Shown: positions 1 through 63,668 of the stretch, piece after piece
Layout: every line of letters begins with the position of its first letter
Numbering within the stretch: position 1 is the stretch's first letter
Origin: a virus
IMG/VR virus record: IMGVR_UViG_3300049432_000050
Location: 1-63,668 of that record
Reading direction: 5' to 3' (one strand)
Length of the DNA: 63,668 nucleotides
Translations under genes and position numbers: made by a program
Notes under the pieces: model-generated
Seen by the model: only the letters and a program-made list of their open reading frames with translations
The model's database searches: none
What the model was told of the DNA's origin: nothing

Positions 1-126
1 GGCATACAGGCGGGACGGGATGGCGTGCGTTATTGAGCAGCCTTCGCGTGGACAGACGACGATGGTGAGGTCGGTCTCGGCGGCGTACACGAAGCCTTGC
101 TGGACGCGACGGAGTTCTGTGACGTG
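1..126. repeat. Left copy of 126-bp terminal duplication
   Basis: Bases 1-126 are identical to 63531-63656. The match ends where the right copy runs into adapter sequence. It is the overlap expected when a circular or circularly permuted genome is assembled as a linear contig, so the true unit length is about 63,530 bp. Confidence 0.95.
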
Positions 127-7742: not shown

Positions 7743-8046
7743 CCGCATCATGCTGTTCGAGGGAGCCGAGGGCGACCCCGCGACGGGCGACGGGTGGCTG
7801 CCGAGCGTCTGGCTCGAGCGCGACGGGACCGACCTGTACCTCGGAGTCAATGAAGAGGTAGCGGGCGTCGCGGAAGGTGTACCTCGCGACGCGTTTGATG
7901 CGATCCGTGCGCGCCAGTTGACAGGCGCCGAGCGGCGCGTCCTGCTCGCCGCCGTGATGGGCGACCACATGAACCCGGACGACCTCAACACCGCCGTCGC
8001 AAAGCTCGAATCGGTGCTCGACGAGGACGGAGGACAGTCAGCATGA
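7732..8046 (+). CDS. Hypothetical protein, 104 aa
   Basis: An acidic protein with an N-terminal beta-rich half (IMLFEG, VWLERDGTDLYLGV) and a helical C-terminal half. An AACGGAGGACGG site lies upstream of the ATG. There are no catalytic motifs. Confidence 0.6.
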   Translation: MDVDRIMLFEGAEGDPATGDGWLPSVWLERDGTDLYLGVNEEVAGVAEGVPRDAFDAIRARQLTGAERRVLLAAVMGDHMNPDDLNTAVAKLESVLDEDGGQSA

Positions 8047-8267
8047 ACGTGTTCAGGTTGCAGCGGGAGGCAAGGGCCCGGTCGCATGAGGCGACGGTCG
8101 CCCACGACCGCGGAGACTGGACGGAGGCCGCGCAATTGCGCAACGAGGCCACGGACCTGTGGGGGGCCGCGACCGAGCGGTGGCGCGTCTGGGAAGGGCG
8201 ACTCGTGCTCGTCGTGGCCGTGTCCGCGATCGTGTGCATCGCGGCGGTCGGCGGGTGGGTGGCATGA
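8043..8267 (+). CDS. Tail-anchored membrane protein, 74 aa
   Basis: A charged helical N-terminal part with tetratricopeptide-like Ala/Glu/Arg spacing precedes one C-terminal transmembrane helix (LVLVVAVSAIVCIAAVGGWV). It is linked by 4-bp overlaps to both neighbours. Confidence 0.6.
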   Translation: MNVFRLQREARARSHEATVAHDRGDWTEAAQLRNEATDLWGAATERWRVWEGRLVLVVAVSAIVCIAAVGGWVA

Positions 8268-8398
8268 CCCTCGTTCTGCTCGTTCTGCTCGTCGTGTCTC
8301 TGCTCGGCATCCTCGTCCTGGACGCGCTGCTGCGTGGCTGGGGCGACACCCGGCAGACCCCGTACCCCGCACCCCGCGACTCAGGAGATCTGCCATGA
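8264..8398 (+). CDS. Small N-terminal membrane-anchor protein, 44 aa
   Basis: An N-terminal transmembrane helix of Leu and Val is followed by a short polar tail. It lies immediately upstream of, and overlaps, the response-regulator-like gene. It lacks any sensor domain, so it is not a recognisable signalling partner. Confidence 0.5.
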   Translation: MTLVLLVLLVVSLLGILVLDALLRGWGDTRQTPYPAPRDSGDLP

Positions 8399-9120
8399 CT
8401 GCCTTGAGCATCGAGCGGCCGGTCGCGCTGGTCGTCGAGCAGGACGACAAAGTCCGGGTCATGCTCGGTGACAACCTGACCGCGGACGGCTTGGAGGTCA
8501 TCACCGCGGGCGACGCTGGCGAGGGCTTGCGGCTCGCTGGCCGGCACGCGCCGGATGTCGCGGTCGTCGGCGTGAACGGCGGGTCGGGCCGGGACTTCGC
8601 GAAGGTCGTGCGTGCCGGCGAATCCGGCGTTGACCGCCGCTTGCCGATGGTGCTCCTCGGCGGCGATCAACGCGAGCTCGACACGCTCCGCGCGTTCCAG
8701 GCCGGGGCGGACGACTACATGGCGCGGGAGGGCTTCAGCTACCCGGTGCTGTACGCCCGTGTCCGGGCGTTGCTCAGGCGTGTCGAGCTGGATCAGCAGA
8801 CGCGGGAGCGGGTGCGGCGCGCGGGCGGCGTCACGATCGATGGTGCGACCAGGGTCGCGACGATCGAGGGTGGCCCGCCGATCAGCCTGACGAAGCACGA
8901 GTTCTCGCTGTTGTGGGCGCTCGCGGGGGATCCGTTGCGGATCTTCGCGAAGGAGGAGTTGCTGCGGATCATGGGCAACCGTGCGTCGGGGTCGTTGCGG
9001 ACCGTCGATTCGCACGCGTCCAGGTTGCGTAAGAAGTTGGGGAACCCGCCCGGCGTCGTCGTGGGGCGTTGGGGCGCGGGGTACTCGTTGCTGGCGGCCG
9101 AGAGCGCGGTGACGTTGTGA
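8395..9120 (+). CDS. OmpR-family response regulator with degenerate receiver
   Basis: 241 residues. Residues about 10-125 align with a receiver domain, but the positions needed for phosphorylation are lost. The acidic pair reads VEQDD, the acceptor Asp position is Gly in VAVVGVNGG, the Ser/Thr switch is Gly (VLLGGD), and the invariant Lys is missing in GADDYMAREGF. Residues about 145-235 form a winged-helix transcriptional domain (LTKHEFSLLWALAG, TVDSHASRLRKKL, WGAGYSLL). It is probably a phosphorylation-independent DNA-binding protein that mimics or competes with host regulators. A CAGGAGA site precedes the ATG. The wing sequence resembles Thermoleophilia regulators from memory, pointing to a host-derived gene. 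No kinase is encoded nearby. Confidence 0.85.
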   Translation: MTALSIERPVALVVEQDDKVRVMLGDNLTADGLEVITAGDAGEGLRLAGRHAPDVAVVGVNGGSGRDFAKVVRAGESGVDRRLPMVLLGGDQRELDTLRAFQAGADDYMAREGFSYPVLYARVRALLRRVELDQQTRERVRRAGGVTIDGATRVATIEGGPPISLTKHEFSLLWALAGDPLRIFAKEELLRIMGNRASGSLRTVDSHASRLRKKLGNPPGVVVGRWGAGYSLLAAESAVTL

Positions 9121-53351: not shown

Positions 53352-54839
53352 TCACGCCGGGATCGGTTCGGAATCCGGCGCATCGTCCGCGACGGCGAAC
53401 GACTCGTTGACCTCCGCTATGAGCTCATCGGGCACCCAGTAGGCGCGAAACCGGCGCGGCGTCATCGCGGTAGACGCGTCTGCCGGCGAAACCCACGGCA
53501 GCCATGAAAGCCACCGCGGCACCGTGTGCGCCTCGAACTCGTCCGCGGCCTCGTCCACCTTGACGTAGCCCACCCCCGGCAGCGACGGCGGGATCTCATC
53601 CGCTCGCGCGCCCGACATGTACGCGGTGCGGCCGAGAATCTTGCGGACCGTGTCCACGTTGTCGATGCGCAGAGCGATCTTTACGGGGATCTCGTCGCGG
53701 TCCCGCACGATCTCCTTCGTGGCGTTCTGGACGGCGCCGACGACGCTGCATCCCGGTGCGCGCCCGACGTTGATGAGTTGCCGCACCGACTCGCCGACCT
53801 TCTTATCCGCGGCGAGGACACCCTGCTCGTCGAAGAAGATGACCGTGAGAGGCCGCTCCGGCGTCGGTGTCAGCTTGCGCTCACCGCGTCCCTTCAGGTA
53901 CGGCAAGTTGTCCTTCATTCGCGTAACGCCCTTCGCGAGCAGCGCCTCGATGTCCTCGTCGGTATCCGCGAACTCAGCGAACAGATTGCGGCCCGGGAAC
54001 AACTCGACGCCGCCCTTCGCGTCCGCGACCCAAATCTCGACGGAGCCCTCCCGGATATACGGGATCAGGTGCAGGATGATGCTCCAGAACACCGAGCCCT
54101 TGCCCGCCCCCGTCTGCCCAACGACGAGGACGTGCGACCCGAGCACTGGGGCCGTAACCTTCCGCCCGCGCTCGTCGACGCCGATCGGGATGCGGCGCAG
54201 ATCCACCTCGCTCGTGGACGCCGGGATGCCGGGGAACGGGACGACGTCAGCGAGCGGGTCGTCCCCGCGGGGAAGCTCGAGCGTGACGTAGTCCGTCTGC
54301 GGGATGTCCGTCACGCGGCACTCCCGCGCGAGGAACGCTTTTGCGAGGTTCTGCGCGGTCTGCCCGTCATGCCCGACGAACTCGCGTGTCGTCTGTCCCG
54401 GCAGCACCTTCACGCGGACCGTGTCACCGGAGCGCGTGCAGGTCACCTTTGCGAGCTTCGGGACCTTGTCGAATCCGTTGTCAACGATCCCGGTGAGGTT
54501 CTGCCCAGCGAGCACGCGCTGCCACCGCCGCTCATACAGTCGCCACCTGCGGAACGCGCTGTACAGCCTGACGCCGATCAGGCCACGGTACGCCGCGAGG
54601 ACGCCCAGGCGGCCTGTTGTGCGCGCGAGGACGCGGCCCGTGATGTTCCATGCGATCAGGGCCAGGGCACCGTAGAACACGACGCCGACCGCGGCATGCA
54701 AGGTCGTCACGACCGCGAGCGCGACGAACGCGGCGAGCAGGCCGGCGCGGACCGGAAACCGGTATGCCGCGACAGCGACGATCGCGACCGTCTGACACAC
54801 AATCACGATGAGGTTCCAGATCAGGACCGCCCAATCCAT
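53352..54839 (-). CDS. FtsK/SpoIIIE (TraB-like) DNA translocase
   Basis: 495 residues. Three N-terminal transmembrane helices (within about 5-70) precede a cytoplasmic linker and the motor. The motor has GQTGAGKGS (Walker A near 240), VADAKGGVEL, LTVIFFDEQ (Walker B near 332) and VVGAVQNATKE. The architecture resembles the transfer proteins of Streptomyces conjugative plasmids and cell-division FtsK, but there is no gamma DNA-recognition domain. It could move DNA across the membrane or act in segregation. It is convergent with the RusA-like gene and 4 nt from the methyltransferase gene. Confidence 0.8.
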   Translation of the reverse strand: MDWAVLIWNLIVIVCQTVAIVAVAAYRFPVRAGLLAAFVALAVVTTLHAAVGVVFYGALALIAWNITGRVLARTTGRLGVLAAYRGLIGVRLYSAFRRWRLYERRWQRVLAGQNLTGIVDNGFDKVPKLAKVTCTRSGDTVRVKVLPGQTTREFVGHDGQTAQNLAKAFLARECRVTDIPQTDYVTLELPRGDDPLADVVPFPGIPASTSEVDLRRIPIGVDERGRKVTAPVLGSHVLVVGQTGAGKGSVFWSIILHLIPYIREGSVEIWVADAKGGVELFPGRNLFAEFADTDEDIEALLAKGVTRMKDNLPYLKGRGERKLTPTPERPLTVIFFDEQGVLAADKKVGESVRQLINVGRAPGCSVVGAVQNATKEIVRDRDEIPVKIALRIDNVDTVRKILGRTAYMSGARADEIPPSLPGVGYVKVDEAADEFEAHTVPRWLSWLPWVSPADASTAMTPRRFRAYWVPDELIAEVNESFAVADDAPDSEPIPA

Positions 54840-56173
54840 CAGGCACCCACGTCGAAGAGGGAGCCCTGACCTGTCGCGGCGACCGCGGCGCGTGCCTGCT
54901 CGGCCTCCAGGCGCTTGACGAGCGTCATGCCGTCCGGGTGCTCAGACCACCACGCAATACGAGCCTCAGCGATCGCGACGTACTCCGGCTCGCGTTCGAT
55001 GCCGACGAAGTCAAAGCCCTCCAGCTCCGTCGCGCAGCCCGTTGTGCCGCTGCCGGCGAACGGGTCGAGCACCGTCCCGCTGGGCGGGGTGACGAGCCGC
55101 ACGAGCCAGCGCATCAGGCTCAAACTCTTAACAGTCGGATGGGTATTGCGCCGTGGCCGTGGGACGTTGGAACGGCCGGGCCGCGGCATCCTTTCGTGCA
55201 ATGTTCCGCTGGGGCGATGGTCGAATGGGTCGCTCTCGCGCTCCTCGAACCCCTCGAGTCCCGCGTTGCGCTCGGCGCTGGAACTCTTCGCGCAGTAGAA
55301 CGCGCGTCGTTCCGTGTCCTCATGCCGGTGGTCGAAGGTGGGGAAGAACCGCGACGCGCCACCCGAATCGCCCGTGCTGATGACCTTACCTATGGGTGGC
55401 GCAGGGATACCGTTGTAGCCCCCTAGACCGTAATCGCGTCGGGCGGTACCGGGATGAGTCGTCAGCGTTCCCGTCTGCTCATCCAATAAACGGACCGGGC
55501 AGTCCTCGACGCACCTGTACGCGGCGACCTCTTCGGTACCGTCAGCATCCGCGTAGCCCGCGCTCATATCGCCGTTGCGCCCAACCCCGGCCTTGAAGTC
55601 CAGCGATACGCCGGGGCTCTCGCTGCCGAACTGCGGGTTAGGCACAGCGGGGCTCGCGGACTTCACGCGTCGTGTCCCTACCGGCTCGCAACGGGGCGAG
55701 TGACTGAGGATCGTGTTCGCGGGCCAACGACCCAGGTTGGCGTTGTGGCCACCCTCGTCTCCGGCCTCACCGGCGTTCCATCCCCATCCATCAGCACGTC
55801 GTCCGCCGCTCACTGACGCCGGCACATCCTTTGACGAGCCCACCCGGCACCCGTCCACGTTCAGTGCCCCGGTCCCGCGCGCGAGGACGTTCGCGCTCAC
55901 GGTCCCGCTCAAGGGTTTGCGGGCGACGACGATCGGCTCATGCGCGGGCTTGAGAGCGGTCCCCCACCCGGCCCAGCGCTCAGCGTCGGGGGTGGCGGGC
56001 GCGGTGACGGGAACCATGCCATTTATGGTTTCCGACCGCGACGTAAAGCCATCCGTGGCACCCGTCGTTCCCTGCCCCGCGTAGGTTGCGCCGCGCGTGC
56101 CATCCGGGAACTGGGGTCGCATTCCGACGACCTCCCGCTCCACTCCCGCCGCCTTGTCGATCGCCTTGCTCAC
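54839..56173 (-). CDS. DNA methyltransferase, C-terminal part (motif I half)
   Basis: 444 residues. KAIDKAAGVEREVVG begins the part of the protein that usually follows GSGFP directly. ALKPAHEPIVVARKPL and, near the end, TVLDPFAGSGTTGCA (motif I) with GFDFVGIEREPEY place it in the beta class (order IV then I) of adenine or N4-cytosine methyltransferases. It lies in the same frame as the N-terminal half at 56192-56620, separated only by a TGA and six codons. No Shine-Dalgarno sequence precedes the GTG at 56173. See finding on the in-frame stop. Confidence 0.75.
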   Translation of the reverse strand: MSKAIDKAAGVEREVVGMRPQFPDGTRGATYAGQGTTGATDGFTSRSETINGMVPVTAPATPDAERWAGWGTALKPAHEPIVVARKPLSGTVSANVLARGTGALNVDGCRVGSSKDVPASVSGGRRADGWGWNAGEAGDEGGHNANLGRWPANTILSHSPRCEPVGTRRVKSASPAVPNPQFGSESPGVSLDFKAGVGRNGDMSAGYADADGTEEVAAYRCVEDCPVRLLDEQTGTLTTHPGTARRDYGLGGYNGIPAPPIGKVISTGDSGGASRFFPTFDHRHEDTERRAFYCAKSSSAERNAGLEGFEERESDPFDHRPSGTLHERMPRPGRSNVPRPRRNTHPTVKSLSLMRWLVRLVTPPSGTVLDPFAGSGTTGCATELEGFDFVGIEREPEYVAIAEARIAWWSEHPDGMTLVKRLEAEQARAAVAATGQGSLFDVGA

Positions 56174-56191
56174 GTCCAGCGACTTAGGCGC

Positions 56192-56620
56192 TCAGGGGAA
56201 GCCGCTCCCGTACAACCAGTCCAGTTCTGGTCCGAGCGACTCCCCATTGGCATCACCTCCCCCGTTCAGGTGGAGGATGCGGTCACGGATCTCGAAACCG
56301 GCGAGGCGGATCGCGATGCACAGCAGGTCATACGTCCTAGTGCCCCCGAAGGCAACGAGGTGCGCCCCGGGTTTCAGGACGCGGTAGACCTCTCGCCAGT
56401 ACGCGGGTCCGGGCACAAAGCTATCCCAGGAACTCCCCATGAATCCATTGCCGCGATGGACGTAGTCGTCTCCGGCGAGCCAGTGCGTCAAGACCTCCGC
56501 GATGTCCGGCTCACGGCTCAGGCCGTAGGGCGGATCAGTCACGCACGCGTCAACACTCGCTTCGGGCATCGCGGCCATCGCCTCGACGCAGTTGCCGTGG
56601 ATGATGCGCGAGCCCATCAC
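56192..56620 (-). CDS. DNA methyltransferase, N-terminal part (motif IV half)
   Basis: 142 residues. VDACVTDPPYGLS is motif IV. MGSSWDSF, REVYRVLKPGAHLVAFGG and DRILHLNGG are the following conserved elements. It ends at WLYGSGFP and TGA. Typical relatives run on as FPKS without a stop. The half-protein lacks the SAM-binding motif and cannot act alone. It overlaps the coiled-coil gene upstream by 4 bp. Confidence 0.8.
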   Translation of the reverse strand: MMGSRIIHGNCVEAMAAMPEASVDACVTDPPYGLSREPDIAEVLTHWLAGDDYVHRGNGFMGSSWDSFVPGPAYWREVYRVLKPGAHLVAFGGTRTYDLLCIAIRLAGFEIRDRILHLNGGGDANGESLGPELDWLYGSGFP

Positions 56621-63200: not shown

Positions 63201-63656
63201 TCAGCCTTCGGTCGGGTGTGCATGGTCGGGATGCTTCGTGGCCATGTGCCGCTGGAGGTTCGTGAACGACCGGTTGCAGCACGGGCAGACGCCGTTACCG
63301 ACGCGCTTGCGTTCCTTGTCGCGCTGGTTGCGAGCACGGGTCGCGGCGGCACGCTGCGCGCGTTCAGACGCCCGGATCTGATCGCGCTCGGCGGCAATCC
63401 GGCCGGACCGTTGGCGTTCGCGCTCAAGCTGCTCACGCAGGGCATCCTCGTCGCTCGGACCGAGGAACGTCGCTGAATGCCCGTTCGGGCAATACCAGCT
63501 GATCTTCGCATGGCCGGCGCGTTTGGCGTCGGCATACAGGCGGGACGGGATGGCGTGCGTTATTGAGCAGCCTTCGCGTGGACAGACGACGATGGTGAGG
63601 TCGGTCTCGGCGGCGTACACGAAGCCTTGCTGGACGCGACGGAGTTCTGTGACGTG
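63201..63656 (-). CDS. C2H2 zinc-finger protein (5' end completed at position 132)
   Basis: In the circular genome this is a 153-residue protein beginning MTHVTELRRVQQ at position 132. This copy lacks the first two codons because adapter sequence replaces them. Residues about 26-60 hold CPREGC and CPNGH (zinc site 1), then a long charged coiled coil (about 70-125). The end has CPCCNRSFTNLQRHMATKH, a canonical C2H2 finger (Cx2C, Phe, Leu, Hx4H). Such fingers occur sporadically in actinophage proteins and probably bind DNA. Confidence 0.85.
   Translation of the reverse strand, partial: HVTELRRVQQGFVYAAETDLTIVVCPREGCSITHAIPSRLYADAKRAGHAKISWYCPNGHSATFLGPSDEDALREQLERERQRSGRIAAERDQIRASERAQRAAATRARNQRDKERKRVGNGVCPCCNRSFTNLQRHMATKHPDHAHPTEG
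63531..63656. repeat. Right copy of 126-bp terminal duplication
   Basis: Identical to bases 1-126. One copy should be removed when the genome is closed. Confidence 0.95.
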
Positions 63657-63668
63657 AGATCGGAAGAG
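63657..63668 (+). other. Residual Illumina adapter sequence
   Basis: AGATCGGAAGAG is the first 12 bases of the TruSeq read-through adapter. It replaces the genomic GGTCATGG that follows GACGTG at the left end. It is a sequencing artefact, not phage DNA. Confidence 0.95.

What the first reader, a model, noticed from the sequence alone, without database searches (positions are those of the whole stretch)
8395..9120. Phage-encoded response regulator whose receiver has lost all phosphorylation residues
The acceptor Asp, one acidic partner, the Ser/Thr switch and the Lys are all replaced, while the winged-helix half is well preserved. It is likely a constitutive regulator that occupies host promoters or titrates a host regulator. 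Its wing resembles Thermoleophilia regulators from memory, which may reveal the host.
Basis: partly seen in the sequence, partly recalled or inferred. Interest (0 to 1): 0.7.

Follow-up and report, generated by a model that had tools for sequence, protein, structure and literature searches.

The report
Phage copy of a pilus regulator
A virus of soil bacteria (probably Solirubrobacterales) carries a stolen and altered copy of the bacterium's own pilus-gene regulator: its phosphate-controlled switch has been removed but is still kept intact by selection, so it may let the virus reset the host's surface hairs or its own genes without listening to host signals.

Summary
ORF 8395-9120 (+) encodes a two-domain OmpR/PhoB-type protein whose receiver lacks the acceptor Asp (Gly59), the second acidic residue (Gln16), the Ser/Thr switch (Gly89) and the Lys (Arg111). 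A related phage has a 57% identical copy with the same four changes.

The phage pair sits inside a Solirubrobacterales (Thermoleophilia) regulator family (support 100/98 and 100/100). The chromosomal members lie beside a histidine kinase and Tad/Flp pilus genes. Copies in three bacterial genomes, at least two with mobile-element features, share the phage's shortened loop but keep Asp, Lys and an intact activation loop. The order of loss can therefore be read: shortened loop first, Asp and Lys later, in the phages.

The dead receiver is the conserved half (70% identity between phages, omega 0.35) and the DNA-binding half diverges fastest (41%, omega about 1), the reverse of cellular kin. The phages also lost the Trp that matches PhoB W184, which activation needs.

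Best reading: a phosphorylation-blind, activation-poor regulator that occupies DNA, perhaps antagonising host Tad-pilus control. Descent is shown; DNA targets and effect are inferred. New variant of a known kind (pseudo-receiver regulators).

The parts
8395..9120 (+). phage pseudo-receiver OmpR/PhoB-type regulator, 241 aa
8419..8784 (+). pseudo-receiver domain (residues 9-130), full (beta-alpha)5 fold predicted, purifying selection between phages
8440..8442 (+). Gln16 at DD2 (metal ligand) position
8569..8571 (+). Gly59 at phospho-acceptor Asp position (Asp in 36/36 cellular rows)
8659..8661 (+). Gly89 at Ser/Thr switch position
8725..8727 (+). Arg111 at the conserved Lys position
8683..8685 (+). 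Thr97, equivalent of PhoB Arg91 on alpha4 (Arg in 57/57 chromosomal relatives)
   Evidence: equivalence by my own numbering of PhoB
8746..8748 (+). Val118, equivalent of PhoB Glu111 on alpha5 (Glu in all cellular relatives)
   Evidence: equivalence by my own numbering of PhoB
8812..9096 (+). winged-helix DNA-binding domain (residues 140-234), fast-evolving between phages
8971..8973 (+). Met193 where 63/63 cellular relatives have Trp (PhoB W184 equivalent, activation loop)
8995..9036 (+). recognition helix (residues 201-214), LRTVDSHASRLRKK, close to host consensus TRTLDSHACRLRQK
8383..8387 (+). Shine-Dalgarno AGGAG, 7 nt before the ATG
8264..8398 (+). 44-aa predicted membrane peptide ORF, stop overlaps the regulator's ATG (ATGA)
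8043..8267 (+). 74-aa ORF with C-terminal hydrophobic stretch, overlaps the next ORF by ATGA; no homolog in the related phage

Best explanation
The gene is a phage-captured descendant of the Tad/Flp-pilus-linked response regulator of Solirubrobacterales, taken up through a mobile-element lineage. Shown: descent, loss of the phosphorylation site, continued purifying selection on the dead receiver, loss of the activation-loop Trp. Inferred: the pseudo-receiver is a phosphorylation-independent dimerisation module (alpha4-beta5-alpha5 face, 82% identical between the phages, with the Arg/Glu charge pair replaced by Thr/Val). The winged helix still binds direct-repeat DNA but recruits RNA polymerase poorly, so the protein works as an occupying antagonist rather than an activator. 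The likeliest target is the host Tad-pilus regulon, where a signal-blind competitor would hold pilus genes down during infection, limiting adsorption of competing phages. The DNA-binding half diverges because each phage tracks a different host's binding sites.
For: Tree: phage pair 100/99; phages plus mobile-element copies 100/98; whole family 100/100 against 13 paralogs. Chromosomal loci: regulator, HisKA/HATPase kinase, RcpC/CpaB, T2SSE ATPase and T2SSF proteins; one clear copy per genome in six of seven genomes tested. Sites 16/59/89/111 changed in both phages. Receiver omega 0.35 against 0.91-1.00 for the DNA-binding half at equal dS; dN ratio DBD/REC 2.5 against 0.47-1.61 in 70 cellular pairs. 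Trp in 63/63 cellular rows, 0/2 phages; PhoB W184R abolishes activation (PMC3973317). Model pLDDT 87.7 with both domains formed. Recognition helix close to host consensus. Precedents: ChxR (PMC3960148); PIT4, a phage protein acting on pilus and flagellar kinases (PMC10714779).
Against: No operator or regulon was shown. The conserved promoter upstream of the host regulators is absent from the window, and it may belong to a sigma factor rather than to this regulator. Omega about 1 in the DNA-binding half could also mean relaxed function there. The helix differs in the second phage (H207W, A208T). No evidence that this phage uses Tad pili as receptor. NG86 omega values in such GC-rich genes are rough and only two phage sequences exist.
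Confidence: 0.42

Rival explanations
1. It is the phage's own transcription regulator, acting on phage operators. Dimerisation half conserved, DNA-binding half diverging is the pattern expected of phage repressors of different immunity specificity.
For: Receiver conserved and DNA-binding half divergent between phages. No other transcription regulator recognised among the window ORFs scanned. The gene sits among early-type genes just before the recombination genes.
Against: No repeated operator-like direct repeats found in the first 24 kb. No integrase of the tyrosine or serine type, so lysogeny is unsupported. Recognition helix of the window protein still matches the host consensus.
Confidence: 0.27
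2. Decoy: the pseudo-receiver docks on the host histidine kinase or pairs with the host regulator and titrates it; DNA binding is dispensable.
For: Receiver is the half under purifying selection. The alpha1 C-half block LGDNLTADG is as close to host (85%) as mobile-element copies are (83%). PIT4 shows phages do target pilus-system kinases.
Against: The alpha4/alpha5 charge pair conserved in all 57 chromosomal relatives is gone in the phages, which should disfavour mixed dimers. An intact winged helix with a host-like recognition helix would not be needed.
Confidence: 0.16
3. Constitutive activator of the ChxR/HP1043 type that turns on host or phage genes without a kinase.
For: Same kind of site loss as atypical OmpR/PhoB regulators that dimerise and activate unphosphorylated.
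Against: Both phage proteins lost the Trp equivalent to PhoB W184. ChxR, however, activates with a divergent loop too, so this is not decisive.
Confidence: 0.11
4. Non-functional relic of host DNA.
For: Accessory: absent from more distant phages sharing the terminase or annealing protein.
Against: Intact in two phages with purifying selection on the receiver and shared lineage-specific residues; good ribosome-binding site and coupling.
Confidence: 0.04

Closest known systems
Tad/Flp-pilus-linked OmpR/PhoB response regulator of Solirubrobacterales (chromosomal family found here)
   Same: Same family by tree; FSY-x-x-L alpha5, DNLTADG block, recognition helix RT(L/V)DSHA-x-RLR.
   Different: Chromosomal members keep Asp, mostly Lys and Ser, activation-loop Trp, Arg97/Glu118, a neighbouring kinase and a leaderless promoter; the phage protein has none of these.
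Mobile-element copies in Solirubrobacterales genomes (L075, L076, L125, L126)
   Same: Closest relatives; share the two-residue shorter beta3-alpha3 loop V-N-x-G-S-G and loss of Arg97.
   Different: They keep Asp, Lys, Trp and Glu118.
Atypical OmpR/PhoB regulators with pseudo-receivers (ChxR, HP1043, CosR, RitR)
   Same: Receiver fold kept, phosphorylation residues lost, winged helix intact.
   Different: Those are chromosomal and often essential; this one is phage-borne, derived from a pilus regulator, with selection reversed between halves.
PIT4 of Pseudomonas phage LSL4
   Same: Phage protein acting on host two-component systems for pili and flagella; proposed infection exclusion.
   Different: PIT4 binds histidine kinases; this is a copy of the response regulator itself.
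CtrA-dependent phages of Alphaproteobacteria
   Same: A link between phage gene control and an OmpR-family regulator that also governs pili.
   Different: There the phages respond to host CtrA; here the phage carries its own phosphorylation-blind copy.

Membership tests
OmpR/PhoB response regulators | C-terminal winged-helix Trans_reg_C domain | tested here: met
   51 bits against cut-off 26.2; predicted fold
OmpR/PhoB response regulators | N-terminal receiver fold | tested here: met
   Full (beta-alpha)5 order in the model; receivers align at 1.2-2.2 A over about 120 residues; sequence score is below the Pfam cut-off
OmpR/PhoB response regulators | Phosphorylatable Asp with acidic pair, Thr/Ser and Lys | tested here: not met
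   Gly59, Gln16, Gly89, Arg111
Pseudo-receiver (aspartate-less) atypical regulators | Recognised as receiver but lacking key catalytic residues, here the Asp | tested here: met
   definition from PMC12632262
Pseudo-receiver (aspartate-less) atypical regulators | Dimerises and acts without phosphorylation | not testable with these tools
   needs protein
Solirubrobacterales Tad-linked regulator (ortholog) | Falls inside the family in a tree with paralogs | tested here: met
   100/100 for the family, 100/98 for phages plus mobile-element copies
Solirubrobacterales Tad-linked regulator (ortholog) | Neighbouring histidine kinase and Tad genes | tested here: not met
   present in hosts; neighbours in the window are small ORFs and recombination genes
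Solirubrobacterales Tad-linked regulator (ortholog) | Acceptor Asp and activation-loop Trp | tested here: not met
Solirubrobacterales Tad-linked regulator (ortholog) | Leaderless promoter GGGGGCGA-CCTA-ATG | tested here: not met
   found by regular expression in 33 of 49 upstream regions, none in the window

The most novel reading that the evidence does not exclude
The phage carries a signal-blind, activation-dead copy of its host's pilus response regulator that works as a genetically encoded dominant negative, shutting off Tad pili to exclude competing phages, with the DNA-binding half evolving to follow host promoters.
Probability: 0.28. Interest if true: 0.75.

Novelty: new variant of a known kind. 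Interest (0 to 1): 0.55.

Why it matters
How pseudo-receivers arise and act is largely unknown in bacteria. Here the steps are laid out in living relatives: an intact pilus regulator, a mobile-element copy with a shortened loop, then phage copies without Asp, Lys and activation Trp. If the target is confirmed, it shows a phage reprogramming a host surface structure by carrying an uncoupled copy of the controlling regulator, and gives a rare functional handle on phages of Thermoleophilia, a common soil group with few known phages.

Tried and rejected
Single-sequence searches of viral contigs found only the related phage or nothing. The family was reached with a probe sequence recalled from memory and used only as a search seed; all evidence rests on the sequences retrieved. 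Motif search upstream of host regulators gave a conserved leaderless promoter but no convincing regulator-binding repeat, and nothing like it in the window. Operator-like direct repeats in the phage: none convincing. A viral contig starting with a truncated host-type regulator (L102) looked like targeted integration into this gene, but no matching end was found in the last 10 kb of the contig, and its terminase and portal genes look Mu-like by eye, so random insertion is likelier. Host assignment by terminase gave only 2 of 299 class genomes, weak support. Tyrosine and serine recombinases: none.

Full report
1. What is there. The ORF at 8395-9120 (+) encodes 241 aa, with AGGAG seven bases before the ATG and an ATGA overlap with a 44-aa hydrophobic ORF. 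Pfam finds Trans_reg_C at 51 bits and a sub-threshold Response_reg at 26.9 bits. The closest solved relatives by sequence are MtrA, PrrA and RegX3. AlphaFold2 on an alignment of 26 sequences gives pLDDT 87.7, with the complete receiver order and a winged helix; receiver domains in the PDB superpose at 1.2-2.2 A over about 120 residues.

2. The dead site. Against MtrA the positions are DD1 E, DD2 Q, D57 G, T G, K R, Tyr kept. In 36 cellular relatives the acceptor column is Asp in all; both phages have Gly. Alignment doubt is removed by copies reading DVNGGSG where the phages read GVNGGSG. All 18 other regulators from virus records that were compared are intact, so this is not a general property of regulators in such records.

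3. A second phage. Contig IMGVR_UViG_3300048996_000074 shares the annealing protein (85%) and exonuclease (90%) and has a 57% identical regulator with the same four changes. More distant phages sharing the terminase or annealing protein lack it, so it is accessory.

4. Origin. A genome-wide search with a family alignment returned almost only Solirubrobacterales. In 299 genomes of the class, 152 have a match at E <= 1e-30; six of seven genomes searched in detail have a single match at E <= 1e-25 and one has two. The chromosomal gene is followed by a histidine kinase (HisKA plus HATPase), RcpC/CpaB, a T2SSE ATPase and T2SSF proteins, and a 156-aa gene on the opposite strand lies upstream in 12 of 12 loci examined: a Tad/Flp pilus locus. 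In a careful ML tree of 53 proteins the phage pair (100/99) groups with four copies from three genomes (100/98), inside this family (100/100 against 13 paralogs). Two of these copies share flanking genes in different genomes and one lies near primase- and helicase-like genes, which is why I call them mobile-element copies; this label is inferred from neighbours read by eye, not proven. They keep Asp, Lys and Trp. The shortened loop and loss of Arg97 therefore came first, and loss of Asp, Lys, Glu118 and Trp followed in the phage line.

5. Selection. Window against second phage (NG86): receiver dS 0.69, dN 0.24, omega 0.35; DNA-binding half dS 0.63-0.67, dN 0.61-0.63, omega 0.91-1.00; neighbours SSAP 0.21, exonuclease 0.16. 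Identity is 70% against 41%. Cellular pairs go the other way (REC 62%, DBD 68%; DBD higher in 418 of 496 pairs), and the ratio dN(DBD)/dN(REC) is 2.5 for the phages against 0.47-1.61 in 70 cellular pairs. Omega values are rough in GC-rich genes, but the contrast within one gene at equal dS is robust (approximate Fisher p 1.5e-7).

6. Interfaces. Between the phages the alpha4-beta5-alpha5 region is the most conserved part (82%). Arg97 and Glu118, invariant in 57 chromosomal relatives and equivalent by my numbering to the PhoB Arg91-Glu111 salt bridge, are Thr and Val in both phages. Loss of charge here without loss of conservation suggests a rewired dimer face (inference). The alpha1 C-half LGDNLTADG stays host-like, which leaves a kinase-decoy role open. 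In the activation loop, Trp is present in 63/63 cellular rows and in neither phage; PhoB W184R, G185R, V190M and D192G abolish activation (PMC3973317).

7. Mechanism. Shown: descent, loss of phosphorylation chemistry, selection on the receiver, loss of the activation Trp. Inferred: phosphorylation-free dimer, DNA binding without strong activation, antagonism of the host Tad regulon. The main rival is control of the phage's own promoters; no operator repeats were found, but short operators in GC-rich DNA are easily missed. The host promoter motif GGGGGCGA-CCTA-ATG, matched in 33 of 49 upstream regions, is absent from the window.

8. Relation to known systems. It works like atypical regulators with pseudo-receivers (PMC12632262; ChxR, PMC3960148). 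That review does not mention phages, and the literature searches found no phage-borne example, within an open-access library only. PIT4 (PMC10714779) and CtrA-dependent phages (PMC9437464) are the nearest functional parallels. It is a descendant, not a functional ortholog, of the Tad-linked regulator: defining residues and neighbourhood were tested and not met.

9. Context. The window is a tailed phage: terminase, portal, P22-type coat, tape measure, amidase, RusA, PD-(D/E)XK exonuclease. Its ends overlap by 126 bp, so the genome is close to complete, and no tyrosine or serine recombinase was detected. Lysogeny is therefore unsupported.

Noticed in passing
window 1-126 and 63531-63668: Exact 126-bp direct terminal repeat followed by 12 bases AGATCGGAAGAG, an Illumina adapter remnant. 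The genome is probably complete (about 63.5 kb) though the end repeat is hidden by the adapter.
   Followed up: yes
window 54839-56620 (-): N6/N4 DNA methyltransferase motifs are split over two ORFs, with a long extra stretch in the second; split gene, insertion or frameshift not resolved.
   Followed up: no
window 53352-54839 (-): FtsK/SpoIIIE-like protein in a phage without recognised integrase; possible plasmid-like lifestyle.
   Followed up: no
L036-L099, upstream of chromosomal regulators: Conserved leaderless promoter-like sequence GGGGGCGA - about 14 nt - CCTA - about 7 nt - ATG in 33 of 49 loci, possibly an unknown sigma factor regulon for Tad pili.
   Followed up: partly
L102:1-505 (IMGVR_UViG_3300033181_000230): A virus contig with terminase- and portal-like genes begins with a Tad-type regulator cut at residue 167, as if a prophage had inserted in the start of its DNA-binding domain.
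   Followed up: partly
L075 (G247) and L104/L126 (G409): Mobile-element regulator copies share conserved upstream genes of unknown function (about 122 and 188 aa in one genome, 124 and 158 aa in the other) in different genomes; an island with its own regulator.
   Followed up: partly
L056: Record titled Bifidobacterium breve carries a clearly Solirubrobacterales regulator; the title is probably wrong.
   Followed up: no
L041, L050, L052, L053, L055: Several chromosomal relatives keep Asp but have lost the Ser/Thr switch and in some the second acidic residue or Lys: a milder decay in bacteria.
   Followed up: no
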